DNA from: Geosiphon pyriformis
Taxonomy: Eukaryota > Glomeromycota > Glomeromycetes > Archaeosporales > Geosiphonaceae
Assembly: GCA_016748015.1 (NCBI GenBank)
Contig: JAAOMT010000631.1
Coordinates: forward strand, 6,384 to 34,510
DNA length: 28,127 nucleotides
Direction of reading: 5' to 3'
The first letter of the stretch is position 1. Every line of letters begins with the position of its first letter. Shown piece after piece: positions 4,950-28,127 of this stretch. A model generated the notes under the pieces. That model was not told the DNA's origin, made no database searches, and was given only the letters and a program-made list of their open reading frames with translations. The position numbers and the translations under genes are program-made.

Positions 4950-7900
4950 GAAAATTTCATTTAACTAAAAAGTACCTAAATTATAAATTGTGGAATATCT
5001 TCAATGAAAATATTGGCACCACTACCCCAGAAGATTAAATCTTCAACTCTTTTGGATATTGGGGCGTTGAAAAGATCAAAGTTGGTGTATTTCGAATAGA
5101 AAAGATTTAGGGCATCAATATCGGCAGCAGAGAGCAGAGTAAATAACGCAGCGGGTTTTGCATGTTTCCGTAACCACAAAACATATTCACCATTTATGGT
5201 AATCTCTGTAATTACGATGTACATTGCTAGTCCACTATTAAAAAGAAAAGGTACAACTAGAAAAAGAATGCTAATTGATAAAAGGATTAATAAGATTTTT
5301 ACAGATTTTAAGGAATTTACTAAAGATTTGAGAATTACCTTGATAAATATAAATCTCTCACATCTTTTTCATTATTTACAACAAATATGATGTCGACTAT
5401 AACATTGACTAGAATCAATGTAATAGAAACAAAGATAAAAATTTTACCCTAAAATTGTAAAAGTTATTAAATATTTGTTTTATTTTTAAATTTCAAACAG
5501 CAATAATTCTAATATACTGTAACTATAAAAAAGTTAAATACCTTGGAATTTTTCTTTCTTCCTATAAAATATAGAGCCATTAATATTACTGCAATAATAG
5601 CAATTACAATTAACTTTAATTTATTTTCTTCCTAAAGATTAGCTAAAGAAATAGTGTAAGTACAGATATATTAGATATGTAATTTAGTAGAAAACAAGTA
5701 TTGAAGATTAAATTATGATCACTCACGTTTAACTTGGAACCTGTATGTGAAAAAATGCTAATAAGACTGAGCCATTTATTTTTAACTATTCCATAGGATT
5801 TCTTCCAATTTATTGTTTATTAAGGAAATTTTGAGTTGTAATATTTCTTGGCCTGCTGATCAATGATTTGATATGATGTCTTTCAAATAGAATGGTTAAA
5901 GCCAATTGATTTTCAAATATTCTGAAAAATTCATGTTTCTTTTTAATCTTTATTAAATTTGAAAAATCAGTGGTTCTATTTGTATTCAGACGCAAAAGTC
6001 CAGTCAGGGTAGCTTAAATTAATAAACATTATGTATTTTAGTTAGACAACGATATTCAATATTTTTAAAAGAAAATAAGCAATAAATCTTCTTACCTGCA
6101 TGAATGCTTTCTCGTGCTTCTAAACAAACGAGCGAATGAGTGAACAAACGAACGAACAAACGAATGAACAAATGAACAAACGAACAAACAAACAAACGAA
6201 CAAATGAACAAATGAACGAACAAACAAACAAACGAACAAACAAACAAACAAACAAACGAACAAACGAATGAATGAACAAACGAATGAACGAACGAAAAAA
6301 CAAACGAACAAACGAACGAACAAATGAATGAATGAATGAAAAATTAAATTTTAAAATGAATTTCCTAGAAAGCAAAAAAATAAAAAATTTACATTTACCT
6401 GTTTTAAATTGCCAAATATTTCTATAGATTCCTTTAATGGCTTCCTTATACTTTGCATCTTTTATAAAATTATCATCGACAACTATAAAATAATCTTTAT
6501 CCGGTTAATTAAATGTACTTTCTAATACTGTTTCTACTATGATAGTTTTCTTATCCAAACCCACATGACAATTTTTTCCAAGAATAGTTTGTTGGAAAAT
6601 TGACATAGTCTCATTGATTTGATAAATAGAAATATTGTTTCTGTTGGATAATGTGATTTTATTATAATAAGTGATATATATTTTACACTACTCCAATGGA
6701 ATTATCATATTATGACCAGGGTAAGTAATATTAATCAAAGAATTATCATATCCAGTGTCTATTCAAATAAAAAAATCTATAAACATCATTATTCAACCTT
6801 ACCTTTTTTTAAAAAAATGTGGTAAATTCATGGCGTATATTTTAATATTGTTCTTCCCTAATGTAGCAGCTAAGAAGGTATTGTCTTTTAAGATAGTCCA
6901 GAAAGCATCAGAGGAAGTGTTCCATAAATCAGTCTGGTTTCCAAATTGGTCACTTAAAGTAAATTGTTTATTTAAAGTATGCAAATTTTCCCCCCATAAG
7001 GCAGTGGATGTATCCAAATCTGATTGCCCAGATTCATAAGTTATGTCATATTTTAACACACACTTTGAAGAAATGATATTGTAAATTCATAGATTTTTTC
7101 AATTCCAGATTCCATTGTATTTTGATATATGGAACAATAATAACCCAAACCATCAATTTAAGCATCACATGCTTCGATCGAAAAATCATCTGCATCATAT
7201 TGATAAACTAGAAAATGAGGACCAAAATCAGTTGTTTTTCGCTCCCAAAATGTGATATATATCAAATGTTTTTTTATGTTTATACTGGGAGAATCATTAA
7301 TGGGAGAATTATTAACAATATATACATATCCAAAACCTCCTTCAGTTGTGGCAAAAGAGGAATCAGAGCGTGGATACGAACTTAAATTTCCTTCCAATTT
7401 AAGCTTTTTAAGACCAAAAATTGGTGTGATATTTTGATTGAGTCTAGTCCTAGATATAAATTGAATGTTTAAGATTATTGGAATTTATATTGAATATTTT
7501 CAAATCTTATGTTTACTAACTTACGAGCTATTAAAAATACTCCACTCTATTTCTGTATTATTATTAATTATTTTTTTCATAATAAGAAATTTTTCACTTT
7601 GGATACTTATTATTGACCTGTACCCTGTACTTAATTCTATATCACTAGATAAAACATTATGCATTATCAATATTATTTTTATTTTTAAAATTAAATTTTA
7701 TTTAAAGAGTTATTTAATAGAAACCTCTGAACTAATGTTCCATTCCATGAGAATATTTTGCCTTGATTTCTATATTCTACAAAAAGATAATTAGAGTTAA
7801 GAGGATAAATGTCAGTTATATTACTCTTGTCTCCATAATCTTTTTCTTCGGCTCGAGACAATTGACCGTCAGGTGTAAGCTTAAAGTATGCCGAAAGATT

Positions 7901-8107
7901 GTCTACAATATAAACACACTCTAACATAATTGTTCCATCTTGCTGGAAATGGAATACTTCGTCAACACAATGAATTCCCTTTGAATCAATTGGGTATACT
8001 GTTTCATGAATTGATGAACTCTTAATGACTAAAATAAAAAAAGATAAAAATATTGAAATAATCAAGAGGTAATAATTAAAATAAACGGCGAAGAAAAACT
8101 GCTTCAT
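4950..8107 (-). pseudogene. Multi-exon signal-peptide/transmembrane protein gene, broken (glomeromycotan family)
   Basis: Exon 1 runs 8107-7725 (Met start; hydrophobic N-terminal segment over about residues 9-28, a likely signal peptide or anchor; then repeats typical of an extracellular propeller-like domain). Splicing fits 7725/7644 (5' site GTTTCT), then exon 2 7644-7525, then an 85-nt GTAAGT-TAG intron to exon 3 at 7449, and all phases agree. Further downstream are ligand-like extracellular blocks to about 6405, a short exon near 6090-6120, a block at 5810-5995, a transmembrane exon at about 5545-5635 (hydrophobic LIVIAIIAVILMALYFI), a second hydrophobic exon at about 5350-5452, and the last block 5225-4976 (INGEYVLWLRKHAK... 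IEDIPQFII). I recall such proteins as an expanded family in arbuscular mycorrhizal fungi; the function is unknown. In-frame stops at 7158-7160, 6688-6690 and 6505-6507 and TAG after IEDIPQFII all fit lost Gln codons. A frameshift lies near 7080. Confidence 0.65.
6120..6345. repeat. Tetranucleotide microsatellite (AACG/AAAC/AATG)n
   Basis: About 225 bp of four-base units of the form AACN/AATG on the plus strand (AACG, AAAC, AATG interspersed). It lies in an intron of the membrane-protein gene: the exon to its 3' side on the plus strand ends in a GTAAAT donor on the minus strand near 6402, and a minus-strand exon resumes near 6118. The long minus-strand frames over it (repeats of FVRLFVC type) are artefacts of the repeat. 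Confidence 0.85.
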
Positions 8108-9169
8108 TTTTTTAAAAAAAGTTATATTTCTTTGCAGAATAATTTTTTTGAATGGGTTGATTTTTCAGTTTTACCCCAAATTTTATTCTTTAAATATTTT
8201 ATTATCAGAAATTTTAAAACCAAATATAGTTAAGATTATCATTATATTATGCCAGATATTTAATAAATATTATTATTATAGTTTATGAAAAAATCATTGT
8301 GGGATTATATCTAAAAATACTATTTTAACTTTCAAGTTAACCAACTCGGATTAGAGTTTATAAAAATTTAAGTAAATTAATAAACTTTTATCATTTATAC
8401 CTTTGTTATAAAATAAAACCACAATATTTAAATATCATGTTTTGAATAAAGATTACTTGGTAATTTCTAATTATTATTATTTATCTATTATTATATTATT
8501 TAACTGATAAAAATATCATTATTTTATTTATTCTTTGAAGAATAAATTTTTATTTATTGTGTATTGATTATTAGGATGAGATTATCTATAATATTTAATT
8601 AAATGTCGACATTCCAGTATTATAAGGTATGATTTTATTTCTTTTATAAATAAACTTTATCTTGAATCTATATCCAATTCTTTCAGATACACAATAATTA
8701 TATAAATGATGCATGTTATCGCATTCTTAGTAAAAAAATTTTAATGATTTGCAAATTTAGTTTTTCAAATTATTATATTAGTAATGAAATCCTATTTTCG
8801 AAATGTAGAATCTATTGGTTAAAAACACTATTTATGATTATTTCGAAACATAATATCCCAATTAGTACAAAAATTCTTATCTGCAACTGATAAATTTATT
8901 ACTAAAGTTATGTTTGTTACTGTTAATGATGAAAGAAGAATACCTTTTTACATTATGAGATGTGGAGTTTGATGTGAGTAAAGATTTAAATGGTGATCAT
9001 GTGAATTCTAGGTTTTTTAGAGCATAATGAAATTTCCCAAACCTAAGTTGTTGTGTTTCTTTTTAAAGATATTCATGAAAAGGAAGTATAATTAGAATTT
9101 AAAAACAAAAAACAATAATAATTATCTTTTTTACTTAACATGCAAAATAATGATATTAGAACATTTATC
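8108..9169. other. Intergenic, AT-rich
   Basis: About 1 kb upstream of the membrane-protein gene and downstream of gene K. It may hold the promoter of the former, but no motif stands out. There are short patches of mixed composition around 8930-9060 without a convincing frame. Confidence 0.4.
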
Positions 9170-10127
9170 TACTAAAGTAACACGGATATTTGTCCTTTCA
9201 TTGAGTGAAAAGACCATATCATTACTGAAGCTAACGTGTTTAGAATGTAAAAATCATTATAATAGTGTACTGCAGAAACATCTGGACCACCAAATATTAT
9301 TATAACCATGCTATTCGAATCTATGAAAAGATTTTTCAAAGTTTTTGTAAATAAATGACTGAAATGTTACAAAAATAAGGGATTCAATTTTTTTAAACAG
9401 CTTACTTGCAACAGTTCCGTGAAATCTATGAGATGGTGGGATATTTTCATCAACTATCTAATTAATAAAAAAAAAATTTAAGAAATTAAACATTTATAAA
9501 ATTTCTTCACTTACAGTACCTGACTCGACCATAATAAATTATTAGTATTAAAAACATTAATATTCGGCATAGGAACCAATTCTAATTTAAGCTCGTTATA
9601 AACTCTAACAACATGAAATTTTCCATTTCTTAATAGGGTTATAGCGCACATTAGACTATTTTTAGAATCATATCGAAATTCGGTAGTTTCTTAATAAATT
9701 TACATATACTATTAATAAATATAACGTTGAACCCCAAATAATATGTATGATTGAGTTATTGATGCTTGTTGAGATGTATATTCAAGAAGACACATAGAGA
9801 TGATGATAATGATTTATTAATTATAGTCGTATCTGAATTTAACCAGTGTGATAAAGTATTATTGAAATAAAATAAAGAATTTTCAGGCATTGGATTAATT
9901 CCTATTTCACTTCTAGTATTTGAAGACTCAACTTTTTTCAACAATCTTAAGAAAACATCGAATTGTTGGGTTATATCCAAGATCCTATCTCGGTTTTTCC
10001 ATCGTAAAAATAATGGCTACCAATTAACGTAGCAGAATGGGAACTTTAGAGGTTTAAAATAAAGTTTAATCACGTTAAATTGTTCAATCTTGGGAAAATT
10101 TGATTTTAAAAAAAGAAAATCATCCAT
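9170..10127 (-). pseudogene. Gene K: unrecognised multi-exon protein, probably broken
   Basis: Reading leftward: a Met at 10127 opens MDDFLFLKSNFP and runs to TAA near 9756, with a TAG at 10017-10019 between NW and PLFLRW (a likely lost Gln). A frame change follows near 9700. An exon at about 9695-9530 reads FRYDSKNSLMCAITLLRNGK..., ending SSQ next to GTACTGTAAGT. The next exon is 9461-9408 (IVDENIPPSHRFHGTVA then GTAAGC), then an exon at about 9360-9230 with VIIIFGG and YNDFYILNT, loosely like one kelch repeat. Donor and acceptor positions are conserved in the inverted copy at 13222-13620, which supports the gene model. A beta-propeller protein is possible; I cannot name a function. Confidence 0.5.
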
Positions 10128-12104: not shown

Positions 12105-12258
12105 TCACTCGAATTTGGATGTTGTTCGCTTTGCACAATATTTCTCAAGGACAGATTCTATACTTGACGATGATGCTGATATTGGCACAGCAATTATATC
12201 TTCCCTATCATCCATCGTAGCGACCGAGCGTTTTTTTTTGTTACCGACATTCTCTTCC

Positions 12259-12293
<35 letters not shown>

Positions 12294-13078
12294 TTCTTCT
12301 TCTTCCTCTTCTTCTTCTTCCTCTTCTTCTTCGCTAATATTTACCACAGCCGTTGCTGTCCTCCTCGTCAATCGACGTTCAATGGCCGTCAATGTTGGGA
12401 GATTTTTCACCAGAATACGAATTACCAACCTCAAGATTTGTCCGGGTAGTGATTATCAACATCTTCTGGTCTTTAAGAGTTTGTTGCTGTTTCTGCCACT
12501 ATTTGGTAACTTGTTCTGGGATATTATCCTTCAGATTTAAAACGTAAAAAATGGTCAGTGTTACATCAATAACAGAGGTCGGTCACAACTTATCCAAATG
12601 GCCAAGACAGCCGCTCCTTGATGGATTGGCCCTATTTCGATTAGCCCACGGACAAAAGAGACTGCCTGCCATAACAGTGTGGGCAAAAGAGACTGTCCTG
12701 CCATAACTTTATGGTCGGGTGTAGCTCTCACTCACCCGCCTCTTATTAAGTTTGATTGCCAAATTTAGTCATCTTAAAGACTCGGGGGCGTCGTCGTTGT
12801 CACTCTTATATTGAGAGATGATGGCTTCTAGGCTTGCATGAAAGCACTGATGCCATCTAAACCATCTCTCATGAATTAGCAACATATTGTCAGCAAAAAT
12901 ATCTTCTTTTTCCTTTAGCCATGACAAAAAGTTAATTTCACTCCATTCTTCCGGGTTCTTCTCCGCAAAATAATCTGATCAGAAATGCGAATGAACAAGG
13001 TAAGATAGTGACTAATTTTCACAGAAAAAAGACAGCTAGCATTCTCAAGCTACCAAAATATTTCTTTGAGGACGACAT
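12105..13078 (-). pseudogene. Arm gene, right copy with poly-Glu tail
   Basis: This mirrors the left copy: exon 1 13078-13054, intron 13053-12975, exon 2 12974-12769 ending with the same TGA (12769-12771), then the donor GTGAGT and a third exon reading NIPEQVTK. Here a TAG at 12499-12501 replaces one of the two Trp codons seen in the left copy (TGGTGG), so this copy is broken. Past the arm boundary the minus strand continues into a Glu tract of about 28 residues (the TCT/TCC tract 12250-12332), then NVGNKKKRSVATMDDRED and a C-terminus ending KRTTSKFE with a stop at 12105-12107. This looks like an acidic tail exon (about 12333-12105) followed by a basic KKKR stretch. The function is unknown; acidic plus KKKR segments are common in nuclear proteins. 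Confidence 0.45.
12250..12332. repeat. TCT/TCC trinucleotide tract
   Basis: A run of TCT and TCC units. On the minus strand it encodes Glu (GAA/GAG) within the tail of the right arm gene. On the plus strand it gives a poly-Ser frame that I regard as a shadow. Confidence 0.85.
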
Positions 13079-21316: not shown

Positions 21317-21525
21317 CAATATAAATCAAAAATGATGTTAATTAAGACTAATATACTTATTTTTATATTAAAATTAAATAATTTTTTATGTTATTACTTG
21401 ATTTAAAAAGCCATAAAAATTAATTATAGTATGATCACTAAAAAAAAACTACTCATAATATCATATTAGATTGTATTTACTTTACTTTTATGATAATATA
21501 TTATTAGCCAATATTAAACATATTA
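21317..21525 (+). repeat. Dispersed repeat, copy B (more AT-rich)
   Basis: Aligns with the reverse complement of 10891-11100. By hand I count about 14 positions where A has C or G and B has T or A, against about 4 in the other direction; about 9 of the 14 are in CpA/TpG context. Copy B is thus the more mutated copy. Confidence 0.8.
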
Positions 21526-21546
21526 CAATCAGGGAGATTTTCCAAT

Positions 21547-22045
21547 TTGTCAATGGAAATCATTTTTTTTATGATAATAAAAAAAATTAGAGAAGTTTTT
21601 GGAAACAATTGTAAAACACTAAACAAAATTTCTAAAATATTACAATATTTAATTATTATTTTTTTTTATAAGCTGCTACTGTCATCAAAAGACAATGACA
21701 AAACTATTATATCTGGCTTATTGTTTGTGAGTATTATAAGAGTTTTAATAATAGTTAATATATAATACAGTACTGCTGCTCTTGGTATTTTAAAAACTGG
21801 TGGTGCTTCAAAGGCTAGTAGTGCTTTGGAAGCTATTGTTGTAGGTATTGATAAAGTTATTCTGGATCAAACTTTGGCTAATAAGATTATTTTTTCTTCA
21901 TATTGAAAAAAAAATTAACAGACCTACAAATAAGAATAATGGCCCAATAGAATTCTTCAGGAACAAGTTTAATAGGACATTGTTCGAGCAAATTAACTGA
22001 AAATAGAGTTTGAATTTACTATTTCTTAGAAAGAAAAATGTGACT
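21547..22045 (+). pseudogene. Decayed ORF of unknown family
   Basis: ATG 21547 opens an ORF to TAA 21763-21765. The same frame continues directly with YSTAALGILKTGGASKASSA, then LEAIVVGIDKVILDQTLANK to TGA near 21904, and on through several TAA/TAG codons (NRILQEQV, DIVRAN, LKIEFEFTIS). The block of small residues (GILKTGGASKASSALEA) is ordinary protein composition, not chance in this DNA. Stops between NI and YS, KN and QTYK, and AN and LK fit Gln. The family is not recognised. Confidence 0.45.
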
Positions 22046-22129
22046 AATAATAAAACTCAAAGCATAAAAATTCCAATATATATCTAATAAATACGTTTTC
22101 ACACCAACTTTGGCATTTGTGATTAAAAA

Positions 22130-22680
22130 AAAGCTCTATACTAACAATCATATTCATCATTCAACCAATATTTAGTATTAGTGAGCAAAAGTTTGACTAA
22201 TAGTTTTAAAGATATATTAAAAATCAACTTTTTTGGAGCAAATAAATCCATGTTGAATGTTTTTCATAATCCAAACATAATTATACAGAATAGAAATTCG
22301 GACTTAGACTTAACATATTATGTTTTAAAAATGGATATATATAATACAATGGCAGCATTAGCATTAAATTCAATCTTAATGGCTGATAAAATTTTTGTAT
22401 ATGATCCAAATTTTTCAGCTTGTAAAAAATATTGCAAATAGAAGTCAATAAAAAGGAGTGGCAAAGAACCATATATTGAAAATTATTAATATCAAACAAT
22501 TGGCAATAGTAGTTGTTAAAACTTTATGGAATCTATTCAGTGGTTTTCTCTTTAGCAGCTAGTAGATATCTCAACTATGTGTTTAAATAATAGAACTGGA
22601 TGGAGTTTAAAATCTCACAAAACATGTATTAGCAAAAGAGCCTAACCCATAATCTTTATATTATAGCTCTGAACAAGAAT
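22130..22680 (+). pseudogene. Decayed ORF, perhaps transposase-derived
   Basis: The plus-strand frame around 22181-22441 reads FFGANKSMLNVFHNPN, NRNSDLDLTYYVLKMD, ALALNSILMADKIFVYDPN, then TAG and continues KSIKRSGKEPYIENY, TAA, YQTIGNSSC, TAA, NFMESIQWFSL, TAG, QLVDISTMCLNNRTGWSLK, SHKTCISKRA, TAA. The segment D-x(6)-LNNRTGWSLK-x-HK resembles the second catalytic block of DDE transposases of the Tc1/pogo type, a weak match. All stops are TAG/TAA at positions suited to Gln. No terminal repeats found. Confidence 0.4.
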
Positions 22681-23057
22681 TTTGCCAAGCATTATATTGA
22701 ACAATATAAGCATTAGTGCCACAATAATTACAATTTATATTTCACACAACTTCTGGGCTACATATATTAAAATCATCATTCACCATAGAAACAATTACAT
22801 CATAGACATTGGATTTATAGTTAATATCTTCAAAAATACAAGCATTGTATATTAATTAATTACAGTTCTAATTATAAATAATAATACATCCAACTCAATA
22901 TAAACAAAATTGTACACAATACAATATATTTCTAACTTCTTGAAGGATATTTATTAGGTTGTGACATGATTAATTTGATAAGTTTCAAAAACATAATTAC
23001 TTAAAAGAGATATTAGAAAGTTAATAATAGATAATAGTTGTAATTTTATTAATAAAT

Positions 23058-25663
23058 TTACATTTTTTGATGATCTGTTTTTTCACTTATTACTGAAATT
23101 GGTTTCCAAGTACCTAATGATATTTTTTTAATTCACTTTGCTTTAAAAAGTCTATTTTTTTTATCCATGCAATTTCACTGAATTTTTTCATTTCTTCACT
23201 TAATATCTATTTATGGTCAATATCACAAAAAATATGATTAGAAACATTTGGATTTACAAATTGTGTCTTTTTTATCTGAACTTAAAATTAATTTGATTTA
23301 ACAATAAAGCTAGAACGTATATGAAACCTGTATATTTTACTTTTAGAATATCCAATAACATTAAAAAGATTAGTATACAATCTCTTAAATTTAATACAGT
23401 TAAACACTGCAATTTTCTAATGCTGTTGTGAAGATATAGAAAAAATTAACAATTTAAGTGTTTTGTTAATTTTTTCAAGTATTGCATCATAGTCTTAATG
23501 TTAATTTGAAAGTTTAGATCAAGAAATTACAATTTTTTCTTGAATCAGCTTGCAAACTTTAGGCTTCAATTGTAGTCATTGTTCTTTATCAACAATTTCA
23601 ATTAATTGGTAAATAGGATAGCACTAAGCAGACCAAATTGGTGCAAACATTCATCTAGCCATGAGTCTTAATGAAAACCTATTAAAACAAACTCTAGTAC
23701 AAAAGTTAATAATTATTTGTAAATAAAAAAAGACTTATTTATACTTTAATCTGAATATGAGATTTGTTTTATTTTGGGCCCATTTTAAGTAACCTTCAAC
23801 AAATAGATTTTTCTTAAAAACAATATATAGTCACATTAATTTGGAAGTCATTACATGTCTATATATATTATATATTAAATTCTATGACTTATAATAATCA
23901 AAACAATTTTTAAAAAACTGCAGTTGACTTTTACTCTAATATTCCTAATATTGTGCAAAATATTTTATATTAATATTTCAATTCAGCTCAACAAATGCTT
24001 TTAACATATTTATCTCTTCATGAAGAACACCCAAAACCAATATAAGCCAAGAAAAGTTTTTTTTAATTATTTGTGTACAATAATAAGATACTTTATTACA
24101 TGTTACTACAATTCATTTACGGCTACCATTTTTAATGCCAAATAGTTTTTCAATATGTTCAAAAACCTTTTAAATATTGGCAATTGAGTTTGGGTTTATG
24201 GCTATTGGATTAGAAACATATAATTGCAACATATAAATCTCAATTTCTGGATACAATTGTGTATTTTCAAATGTGTAAGAATGAGGAATGAGTTTTTTGG
24301 TGATGTCAACTAATTCATTCAATTGATTTATCTTGGTAATTGTTGATAATTTGTTATGGCATGCAGGACAAATTCACTTCTTATTATTAATATTAAACAA
24401 TTGACAAGCTGGGCATTTTTTTAAAGAACCAATTTGGCTTTAATGTTGTACTAATTCATCAATCACATTTGTATTTTGACTTTTCTCCACACAAAGCTCT
24501 TTTAAAATAATAGTAAGATAATTAGTCAGTTCTTTATAAATTTCATTTATTATATCTGAAGTTAAAAAAATAATTTCTCATATTCCTTTTCGGGAAGTTC
24601 AGAATACAACCAAGAATCTATGTTTTGAATATTATTAATTTGATTATTATTAAAAACTCATAACAATATTGAATATGACTGTATTATATCTGCGATCTAA
24701 GTAATTTTTTTGACTTTTTTGTTCATTGTCAAAGGCTAAAAATAAAAATTTATTGGGAAGCTTTGACTGTTCTATAGCCAAACTTTCTAACCAGTTAGTA
24801 AACTTTTTATAGCAACCGGAACTTATAATATAATTATCAATATCAATGACCATTTTCGATTTTGTTACTAAATATTTGATTGCCAAAGTGGCTAAATTAA
24901 TAGCAGAAACATATTTAAGTGTCTTGATCCATATATAGCATCAATTGCTACAACACACTTAAAAAACTTTTCCTCTTTATTTTGATATTCATTTTTCATT
25001 ATAAGTAAGAGTTTCAATAAATCTTACAATGACTGAATTTCGTTTTGCAAGTTAAGTTAAAGAACAATACTCTAAAAAACTATCTAGACTAAAACGTTCA
25101 TGATTTTTTTTTAAACTTATTATATTATTATACAAATTATTTTGTTTCCTTTTGGTGATTTCTGTTATGGATTTAATATGACTTTGTTGATTATTAAATG
25201 TTGCATTCTCAGATAATAATTGCTGATTGATATTTTCTAGTTCCTGTATCCATTTTATATAAACTTTATATATTGGATCTGGCAAGAATACTTGGACTCC
25301 AAAATCAGAAAAAGTTTTTTCTAATTCTAACAACTTGTTATTATTAGAAAGTTTTGGTCTTTTTTTTTTTTTTTCTAAATCTAAAAAATTTGAATCATTT
25401 GATTTAGTAATTCGTTTAATAAAAAACTTTTTAACAACAATCTGATTATAATGTCTTTTACATAAAGAGTAATTGTTTAGAGAGTCAAGTAATATAGTTA
25501 ATCTAAGAAAATACTTAGTTATTTCTATTATTCTTTCTGTTGCAACACTAACTGATGCATGTTGCCATCTTTGACTTTCTTTGATCTCACATTTTACTAA
25601 TTGACTTTTGTCATATTCACTAATAAGAGATTCAAATAAACAGGATAAGTCTTTGGCATTCAT
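23058..25663 (-). pseudogene. Long ORF (about 870 codons) of a glomeromycotan repeat-type protein family, hypermutated
   Basis: From the Met at 25663 one frame runs to TAA at 23058-23060 with about 25 internal stops and only two shifts, both single bases at T runs (near 24657 and 24570). Blocks in order: N-terminal helical part (SQRWQHASVSVATERIIEI, LCKRHYNQIVVKKFF, coiled-coil-like LENINQQLLSE); then CYIWIKTLKYVSAINLATLA, FLFLAFDNEQKSQKNYLDRR (24770-24700); NIQNIDSWLYSELPEKEYE; a zinc-knuckle-like CPACQLF...ICPACH pair (24415-24355); KLFGIKNGSRK*IVVTC; LVLGVLHEEINMLKAFVEL; FAPIWSA; YPIYQLIEI. I recall this family as a multicopy, probably transposon-linked protein of mycorrhizal fungi, but I could not search. 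Stops are TAA, TAG and TGA where Gln, Trp or Arg fit (NKK*ICPAC, ELN*NI, SRK*IVV). The Cys residues of the zinc pair remain. Confidence 0.7.
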
Positions 25664-28127
25664 TATAAAGCAAGATGTAATTTTAAATCCAATTTAATAA
25701 AAAACTACTATGTAAAGTTGTGTGAATCTTTATAGATTCTAAAACTTTGTGTTTATAAAATATGTTTCTACTATTAGTTTCGATTTTTATATGAAGTATT
25801 TGATTAATAAAATATTATCGAATTCTCTATGCTAATAATGCTAAACAGTAATTAGATTACAAGAATTTTTTGTGAATTATTTCAGAATTGATCTACGAAA
25901 TTTAAAATCTCCTTAACTGTATTAAAAATAAATGAGTACATATAATAACACTTTTTGTTAATTAAAAGTTATGTAATATTTTTAATATCGATAAAACTAC
26001 ATTATTTTATATTATATTACCAAATTGAGATCTTATTACAATATTATGTTATGATACTAAACAATTAAAAGTGTAACTAATACTTGCTTTTACAATCAAT
26101 ACTAATAGAACTAAGTATTTGTCACCACTTATTGTTAATCATGCTAAATATTTATGTTGTTTTCAAAAAAAAATAGAAGAATAACTTGGTTTTTAATATC
26201 ATTCAAATATTTGCACTTAGATAACTGGTAATATTTTTTAATAATGACTTATTAATTAAGATTATTAGTTACATAAAAAAAACCAAAACATATTGTTATT
26301 AATAGACAATTTTGCTAATCATAAATATAATACAAAATTTATTACAAATATTTATATAAAACAGTTTATATTTAACTTAACAACATATATTTAGCCTATA
26401 AATACTAGAATTATTTATTGTTTTAAGACATATTCCTGTCACTATTTTTTTTATTATATATTAAATCTTTTTAATAATAATATTAATAATATTTATGTAA
26501 TTAACCAACTTTAAGCAATATGTCTAATTTATAAAACAAGAAAAAAGTTTTAAATAAAATAATTACTTATTACTAACAAAAAGTTGGCATTTTTTTAATC
26601 AATACAAATAACAACTTTTAGAATAAAACTGCAAACTTAAAAATAATAACTAATTATAATCAAAAAATAGTATAAGAAAAGATTAAAAATGAATACAAAA
26701 AATTCAATTATATATAACCAAATTGTACATACTTATTAATTAAAAAACTAATAAATTTATCTAAAAAAAACAATACAATTATTTTAAAATATCTGAATAA
26801 TAATAAAATTGCAAATTATATTATAATAAATTGTAAAACAAAACATGATAGCTCTAATAAAAAACAAAAAGTACAAAAAATAATAAGTATTAAAATATAT
26901 TAACTATTATTACAAATTTTAAACAATTTATAAAGCTTAAAAATAACAAGAAATTTTATGATATAATTAGTAAGCTTGCTTATGATAAATATATACTTCA
27001 TAAAAAAATACAAAATAAACAAAAACAAATAACTCTTATAAATTTCTTTAATATTGTATAAATTATTTAAAAATTTTTATAAGAATATGCAAATAAATTT
27101 ATTTTTTAATAATATTATATCTATTTTTATTATATATATACTATATATACTTAAACTTAAGAAAACTTATAACTTGTAATGATCTATAACAATTTATATC
27201 TACTAAAAATATAAGTTATTTTAGGTTTAATTGTAATATACTTTTATTAAAAATAGTTTTTTCTTATAATCAATACAAATAAACTTTAAGTATTAATATA
27301 GCTAGTTTTTTTAGTTAAAAAATATATATTATAAAATACTTATTATTAATTTTTTTAATTTGTCTTTTTTTATTTAATTTAATAATAATAACAAATTTAT
27401 ATAAAAATTGTTAATTTATAAAACTTAATAAGTTTTTAAGATAGATTTTTTTTTTAATTTTAATAAACAGTTTTTTATAATAATAGTTTTAAAATAATTA
27501 CAAATAGCTAGTATTTTTATATAATATTTGTTAAAATTTTATTAAAATTCTTAAATATTTTAGTTAAATATAATATTAGATTTAAAAAATTAATTATTAT
27601 TAATAAGTATTTAGTACTTTATAATTTTAATTATTAAGATTAATTAAGTATAATAATATTATTAACTTTAAAAAAAAGTCATTAATTTTATTAATTAAAG
27701 TTTTTATAATTCTATTAATAATAATTAAATGTGTATTAATAGTTATATTAACTTAATAATTTTATTAATCTATAAGTTATTTTGTAATAATATATAAAAT
27801 TAAAATTTAGAATATGTTTGATTTTTTAATTATTAATTTTTGTATTTATAAATATTATTATAAATAAGTTAATAAAGTTTAAAACAGTTTTATTAATTAG
27901 CAGTTTTTTTGTTTTTTTTAAATCAAATAGAAATATAGTAATAAAAATATTATTTTCTATAATTATAACAAATAAAATAATATTTAATGTGTTTAATTTC
28001 AAAAAATAAATAATAAACTAATTTTTTGATATAATAAAAAAACTTAAATAGCTTTAAAAATTTGAAATTATAAATGTGAATTTTTTAAATTTTTGATGTA
28101 TTGTTTTTATTATTAATTAGTATTATT
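25664..28127. other. AT-rich stretch without recognisable genes
   Basis: About 2.5 kb of A/T runs. 25934-25960 (GAGTACATATAATAACACTT and on) resembles the reverse complement of 10860-10886, just beside dispersed repeat copy A, so another fragment of that repeat family may lie here. Nothing else recognised. Confidence 0.5.

What the first reader, a model, noticed from the sequence alone, without database searches (positions are those of the whole stretch)
23058..25663. An 870-codon ORF destroyed almost only by C-to-T / G-to-A changes
The frame is kept for 2.6 kb with just two single-base shifts at T homopolymers, yet there are about 25 in-frame stops. They occur as TAA, TAG and TGA in contexts that suit Gln (CAA/CAG), Trp (TGG) and Arg (CGA), the only sense codons that become stops by a C:G-to-T:A transition. 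Random decay would give many more indels and other stop origins. This is the pattern of repeat-induced point mutation or of strong methyl-cytosine deamination. If the host is an arbuscular mycorrhizal fungus, an active RIP-like process there would be noteworthy; I am not aware of firm evidence for one.
Basis: partly seen in the sequence, partly recalled or inferred. Interest (0 to 1): 0.8.

Follow-up and report, generated by a model that had tools for sequence, protein, structure and literature searches.

The report
Transposons riddled with C-to-T mutations
A jumping gene and at least one unrelated family of jumping genes in this low-GC, apparently fungal genome have lost a large share of their C's to T's while the duplicated genes tested have not, which suggests that the organism mutates its silenced transposons in a way that resembles, but does not match, the known fungal defence called RIP.

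Summary
The core observation holds. The minus-strand frame 25663-23058 is a broken transposon gene with 35 stops: 11 lie in blocks shifted by indels private to this copy, 3 are shared by every aligned copy, and the other 21 all trace to CAA/CAG, TGG or CGA. It lies in a 4,394-bp TIR element (21526-25919); 39 other matches were listed genome-wide. Pairwise ts/tv among copies is about 22 (41-49 in a sister set); a multicopy gene family in the same genome gives 1.1-1.4. An unrelated MULE family shows the same bias and the same trinucleotide signature. In three Tc1-like groups, 5 of 12 copies are hit and their sisters are not.

It is not textbook RIP. There is no CpA bias (CpG highest, then CpC; strong TpC preference), the CpA-based substrate index is negative in 19 of 19 copies, and the duplicated genes tested and young Tc1 copies are spared. 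CpG sites decay one strand first, and C-to-T load rises with transversion age over three families.

Best reading: continuing, methylation-coupled C-to-T mutation of silenced transposons. A DNMT1-like and two DIM-2-like genes are present. The host fits an arbuscular mycorrhizal fungus but this is not proven.

The parts
21526..25919 (-). whole transposable element copy (4,394 bp, GC 0.243), gene on the minus strand
   Evidence: homology to other copies stops near 21513-21521 and 25924-25932; terminal inverted repeats 13 of the first 16 bases alike, TA on both sides
21526..21547 (+). left terminal inverted repeat (3' end of the element); TA at 21524-21525
   Evidence: 5 of 6 copies seen at this end have TA, by eye
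25898..25919 (-). right terminal inverted repeat (5' end of the element); TA at 25920-25921
   Evidence: 10 of 11 rows seen at this end have TA, by eye
23058..25663 (-). broken reading frame of the finding: 868 codons, 35 stops
25055..25663 (-). first 203 codons, still open
22334..22869 (-). 536-bp stretch present here but absent from a subset of copies (L001-L003, L005, L016, L054, L055, L057)
22960..23983 (-). 3' part of the frame shared with the more abundant sister set (L032-L046)
   Evidence: alignment

Best explanation
The stretch is a dead copy of a TIR DNA transposon whose copies have been mutated almost only from C:G to T:A. Shown: the bias is extreme, is common to two unrelated element families and, more weakly, to some Tc1-like copies, has one trinucleotide signature (CpG highest, then CpC; TpC preferred), and is absent from the duplicated genes tested. 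Inferred: copies that become silenced are cytosine-methylated at CG and, more sparsely, at other cytosines, and these cytosines turn to T over many cell generations, by deamination of 5-methylcytosine or by an error-prone action of the methyltransferase. CpG sites go first because they are kept methylated on both strands; once one strand is hit the site is no longer CpG and the other C mutates slowly. Copies that escape silencing stay almost intact. This would be a continuing, mitosis-compatible, RIP-like process aimed at silenced transposons rather than at duplication as such.
For: ts/tv about 22 over 173 pairwise segments of 19 focal copies and 41-49 over 120 segments of the sister set, against 1.1-1.4 by identity bin over 86 segments of a multicopy gene family (single segments 0.67-4.5). 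Focal C>T 5161, A/T>G/C 42, transversions 115 of 45434 cells; sister set 1360, 7, 19; MULE 1740, 51, 57. Trinucleotide rates of the three sets correlate, Spearman 0.85-0.96. CpG states in focal copies CG 53, CA 418, TG 406, TA 275 where independence expects 188, 283, 271, 410: odds ratio 0.09; 0.06 in both other sets. Non-CG C>T 0.170, 0.290, 0.453 goes with transversions per site 0.0011, 0.0025, 0.0052, a ratio of 165, 135, 117, against 3.3 in the gene family. No clustering or strand blocks within copies. In three Tc1-like groups 5 of 12 copies carry 22-37 private C>T in about 1 kb and 7 carry 2-9, with similar transversions. DNMT1-like gene (RFD, BAH) and two DIM-2-like genes (BAH, DUF7893) present.
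Against: Methylation itself was not seen. Published R. irregularis methylomes speak of CG methylation (PMC8647823, passages), while here non-CG cytosines are hit too. The Zymoseptoria Dim2 mutator acts at CpA and spares CpG (PMC8016269, passages), unlike this. The TpC preference is not explained by a known C5 methyltransferase that I can name. Copies differ in non-CG load more than chance (0.196-0.346, p 6.5e-15). The clock rests on three families and on 19, 115 and 57 transversions. Strict singletons in focal copies show a smaller bias (74 C>T/G>A, 42 T>C/A>G, 58 transversions), although per site it is still 0.080 against 0.0015 and 0.0020. The hit rate falls towards the 5' end (observed/expected 0.69-0.89 in the first 300 bp) but not towards the 3' end (0.96-1.08). 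Ancestral bases were inferred from the copies themselves.
Confidence: 0.55

Rival explanations
1. True RIP: a homology-triggered, RID-dependent burst of C>T in duplicated DNA before meiosis, with an unusual context preference.
For: Only C:G>T:A, in repeats, at very high load; copies of one Tc1-like family differ; [quoted passage not shown] A C5-methyltransferase pair on C318, without a BAH match in the two upstream frames scanned, could be RID-like.
Against: Gene duplicates of 80-95% identity over 1-3 kb have ts/tv near 1.3, and 98%-identical Tc1 copies are untouched. CpG decay is sequential, C>T load tracks transversion age, and there is no CpA bias.
Confidence: 0.2
2. A cytosine deaminase of the TpC-preferring kind acts on transposon DNA, for example while it is single-stranded during transposition or R-loop formation.
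For: TpC preference (focal TCA .436 against ACA .164, TCT .333 against ACT .141).
Against: CpG and the 3' base matter as much as the 5' base; sequential CpG decay; no strand blocks or clusters. No search for a deaminase gene was made.
Confidence: 0.12
3. Ordinary CpG-only methyl-cytosine deamination plus neutral decay.
For: CpG is the most mutated context, with strand-sequential decay.
Against: Non-CG cytosines have lost 17-45% of their C's while transversions are 0.1-0.5% per site; the ratio is 117-165 against 3.3 in the gene family.
Confidence: 0.08
4. It is only the mutation spectrum of a very AT-rich genome, read from neutral DNA.
For: The window has GC of 0.10-0.41 by 1-kb bin.
Against: Duplicated genes, their AT-rich segments included, give ts/tv near 1, as do young Tc1 copies (1.2-1.8 at 97-99% identity).
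Confidence: 0.03

Closest known systems
Repeat-induced point mutation (RIP) of Pezizomycotina
   Same: C:G>T:A only, in repeated DNA, making stops from Gln/Trp/Arg codons
   Different: no CpA bias; negative substrate index; duplicated genes tested are spared; CpG decays sequentially; load follows age
Dim2-dependent mitotic C>T mutator of Zymoseptoria tritici (PMC8016269, passages seen)
   Same: C>T in transposons, compatible with asexual growth, with a DIM-2-type enzyme present
   Different: there more than 98% of C>T at CpA and CpG spared; here CpG first, then CpC, with a TpC preference
CpG / TpCpG RIP-like bias in basidiomycetes (Microbotryum, Rhizoctonia AG8; PMC4352252 and PMC4014442, passages seen)
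   Same: CpG is the top target; in Microbotryum TpCpG
   Different: here TCG is only modestly above other NCG, and non-CG cytosines are heavily hit as well; in Rhizoctonia genes are hit like repeats
RIP signal reported outside Dikarya, Zoophthora radicans (PMC10515909, passages seen)
   Same: RIP-like reading in a non-Dikarya fungus with PF00145 genes
   Different: rests on dinucleotide indices, not on aligned copies with an internal control

Membership tests
RIP | mutations almost only C:G>T:A | tested here: met
   5161 C>T/G>A against 42 A/T>G/C and 115 transversions
RIP | repeats hit, unique DNA spared | tested here: inconclusive
   transposon families hit, a gene family spared; single-copy DNA cannot be compared within one genome
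RIP | any duplicate of sufficient length and identity is hit | tested here: not met
   gene duplicates over 80% identical for 1-3 kb have ts/tv near 1.3; 98%-identical Tc1 copies have 1-3 private C>T each; one gene family only, plus one DNMT pair with ts/tv 2.0-2.4
RIP | CpA preference and RIP indices | tested here: not met
   CpA is third of four contexts; substrate index 0 of 19, product index 15 of 19 (thresholds recalled)
RIP | RID-type methyltransferase required | tested here: inconclusive
   PF00145 matches at 10 places; no reference RID sequence at hand for a tree
RIP | acts before meiosis | not testable with these tools
   no crosses, no generations
5mC deamination | CpG most mutated, one strand first | tested here: met
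5mC deamination | restricted to CpG | tested here: not met
   non-CG C>T 0.17-0.45
5mC deamination | the mutated sites are methylated | not testable with these tools
   no methylation data
IS630/Tc1/mariner element | TA target duplication and TIRs starting CAGT | tested here: met
   TA at 10 of 11 5' ends and 5 of 6 3' ends (by eye); that CAGT/TA suggests this superfamily is recalled
IS630/Tc1/mariner element | DDE transposase of that superfamily | tested here: not met
   no Pfam family above cut-off in the broken frame read with X at stops, so the element is not filed there
host = arbuscular mycorrhizal fungus | Sel1 expansion | tested here: met
   2002 first-look candidates, 150 scored, 150 matched; Sel1 among inflated AMF families: PMC6123716, passage; other lineages not compared
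host = arbuscular mycorrhizal fungus | AMF rDNA | tested here: inconclusive

The most novel reading that the evidence does not exclude
Outside Dikarya, in a largely clonal mycorrhizal lineage, silenced transposons are driven to death by a dedicated, clock-like, all-context cytosine mutator with a Y-C-G/C signature. It needs no meiosis and no homology search, and CpA-based RIP scans cannot see it.
Probability: 0.35. Interest if true: 0.8.

Novelty: new variant of a known kind. Interest (0 to 1): 0.6.

Why it matters
A 2025 survey across fungi reports that ascomycetes alone show repeat-enriched RIP-like signatures (PMC12543289, abstract and one results section), and a paper on Gigaspora states that it lacks RIP (PMC7082362, passage, citing Venice 2019). 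If the host is an arbuscular mycorrhizal fungus, this shows strong transposon-directed C>T mutation there with a context that the usual indices miss, so negative RIP calls in early-diverging fungi would need redoing on aligned copies. It would also mean that transposon ages from Kimura distance are several-fold too old in such genomes, and would tie methyltransferase genes to a mutational outcome that can be tested in clonal cultures.

Tried and rejected
Background AT bias: rejected by the gene-family control. CpG-only decay: rejected by the non-CG load. Processive deamination in strand blocks: no sign. Taper at both ends: seen at the 5' end only. Family of the encoded protein: nothing above cut-off in Pfam and no significant PDB match; best Pfam hit a weak zinc ribbon. 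Helitron_like_N: no match, but nothing rang in the controls either. hAT domain: 13 short matches, not pursued. No structure was predicted.

A mistake of mine: the CpC column printed is inflated by a key collision in the script; one search recounts it (hit Tc1 copies: CpG 26 of 110, CpC 23 of 211, CpA 40 of 456, CpT 31 of 436; 5' T 56 of 406, 5' A 29 of 379). The label 'hit' was given after seeing the counts, so the Fisher p is descriptive only.

Rows dropped: of 40 DNA matches listed 18 longer ones and 15 of the shorter ones were fetched besides the window; of 143 DDE_3 matches 20 fetched, 18 used in the private-change counts; of 18 MULE matches 16 regions fetched, 11 used (L079, L080, L094 another subset; L081 without partner; L090 distant).

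Full report
What is there. The window lies at C89:6384-34510 of a 124.7-Mb genome in 406 contigs. The finding's frame is on the minus strand: 868 codons from the ATG at 25663, with 35 stops, the least interrupted of the six frames. It is the 5' part of a longer element. Comparison of flanks puts the ends at 21526 and 25919, 4,394 bp, with inverted repeats (13 of the first 16 bases alike) and TA on both sides. TA is present at 10 of 11 5' ends and 5 of 6 3' ends read by eye. The encoded protein has no Pfam match above cut-off and no significant PDB match, so its superfamily is open; CAGT ends with TA recall Tc1/mariner, from memory.

Copies. A DNA search lists 40 matches, the window included (133 candidates, 40 scored). 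Eighteen were fetched; with the window they are mutually 83.8-89.4% identical without clear subgroups, a star-like pattern. Fifteen further matches to the 3' part belong to a sister set whose homology to the window stops at 23983.

The stops. Of 35, 11 fall in two blocks (codons 225-241, 338-362) between indels that this copy alone has against the 8 copies listed; 10 of these 11 are stops in all aligned copies in that register. Three (819, 850, 858) are stops in 15 of 15. The other 21 face Gln, Trp or Arg codons; 19 have a direct C>T/G>A parent in at least one copy, and two (TGA facing CAA) imply a CGA ancestor.

Spectrum. Over 2643 columns, 754 segregate as A/G or C/T in at least two copies each and 5 as transversions; pairwise ts/tv is 24.5. 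By BLAST segments it is 22.2 in the main identity bin (166 of 173 segments) and 41-49 in the sister set (120 segments). The control is a multicopy gene family that the window itself carries at 5000-9500 (10 further loci): 86 segments, 75-99.6% identity, ts/tv 1.1-1.4 by bin, single segments 0.67-4.5. Private changes there are 93 C>T/G>A, 87 T>C/A>G and 132 transversions, 0.0328 per G/C site against 0.0100 transversions per site. A pair of methyltransferase genes gives 2.0-2.4. The excess is therefore not the genome's ordinary spectrum, as far as these controls reach.

Other transposons. Eleven MULE copies give C>T 1740, A/T>G/C 51, transversions 57; their pairwise segments have ts/tv 6-32. Trinucleotide rates of focal, sister and MULE sets correlate at 0.85-0.96 (16 contexts), and at 0.91-0.94 without CpG. 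Among Tc1-like copies (20 fetched of 143 DDE_3 matches) young pairs at 97-99% identity have ts/tv 1.2-1.8. In three groups 5 of 12 copies carry 22-37 private C>T, their 7 sisters 2-9, and six copies of two further groups 1-5; transversions are 2-10 throughout. Hit Tc1 copies rank contexts alike: CpG .236, CpC .109, CpA .088, CpT .071, with 5' T .138 against 5' A .077.

Context and tempo. Focal rates: CpG .594, CpC .365, CpA .292, CpT .246; CHG .252, CHH .297. TCA .436 against ACA .164. At CpG the two strands exclude each other: CG 53, CA 418, TG 406, TA 275, odds ratio 0.09, and 0.06 in both other sets. A single burst that hit both strands independently would not do this; sequential loss, with the site ceasing to be CpG after the first hit, would. 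Neighbouring C-W-C sites show no such effect (odds ratios 1.04, 0.64, 1.14). Non-CG C>T rises with transversions over three sets (0.170, 0.290, 0.453 with 0.0011, 0.0025, 0.0052 per site), a ratio of 165, 135 and 117 where the gene family has 3.3. That looks like a fast clock, on three points, one with only 19 transversions. Against a pure clock, focal copies differ in non-CG load beyond chance (0.196-0.346).

RIP test. CpA is not favoured; the substrate index is on the non-RIP side in 19 of 19 copies while the product index passes in 15 of 19 (thresholds recalled). Duplicated genes and young Tc1 copies escape. Classical RIP is therefore not filed; a RIP-like process is.

Enzymes. PF00145 matches lie at 10 places. 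Reading the loci: C96 has RFD, BAH and catalytic blocks (DNMT1 type); C327 and C355 have weak RFD, DUF7893, BAH and a catalytic block with AGSPCQGFS (DIM-2 type; the motif is recalled); C307 and C346 look like DNMT2 (recalled motifs); a pair on C318 has a catalytic domain and no BAH match in the two upstream frames scanned. Nai et al. (PMC7862722, passages) say that BAH is absent from RID/Masc1, which makes the C318 pair a candidate and no more.

Host. AT-rich DNA, size, Sel1 expansion (2002 candidates, 150 scored) and the methyltransferase set fit an arbuscular mycorrhizal fungus (PMC6123716, PMC8298701, passages). rDNA was not found by two primer patterns and the SSU model search failed. The name is not proven.

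Literature. Seen as passages unless said: PMC8647823 (R. irregularis: CG methylation on transposons, RIP not detected in Gigaspora), PMC12543289 (abstract and one section: ascomycetes unique), PMC8298701, PMC8016269, PMC4352252, PMC4014442, PMC10515909, PMC13297926, PMC7082362, PMC11075540 (no mention of RIP found by term), PMC7862722. Searches showed no report of C>T hypermutation of transposons in arbuscular mycorrhizal fungi in their listings; subscription papers are not covered.

Noticed in passing
window 5000-9500: Multicopy gene family without Pfam match, with many local copies on C333, C368, C360 and C89; used here as control.
   Followed up: partly
window 22334-22869: A 536-bp stretch present in this and some copies and cleanly absent from others (L001-L003, L005, L016, L054, L055, L057): two structural variants of the element.
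   Followed up: no
window 22960-23983: The 3' part of the frame occurs in a more abundant sister set with a different 5' part (L032-L046), a chimeric or sister element with a lower C>T load.
   Followed up: partly
window 12105-12540: Long run of Glu (minus) or Ser (plus) codons in both reading directions, beside a repeated coding-like segment.
   Followed up: no
window 6019-6504: Low-complexity minus-strand frame made of repeated FVRLF/SFVRLFV units.
   Followed up: no
L097 1654-2190 and L096 1939-2424: Both DIM-2-like genes carry DUF7893 (PF25423) beside a weak DNMT1-RFD match; the function of this domain is not stated in Pfam.
   Followed up: no
L047 and L048 (C318): Two neighbouring, about 90% identical C5-methyltransferase genes 32 kb apart.
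   Followed up: partly
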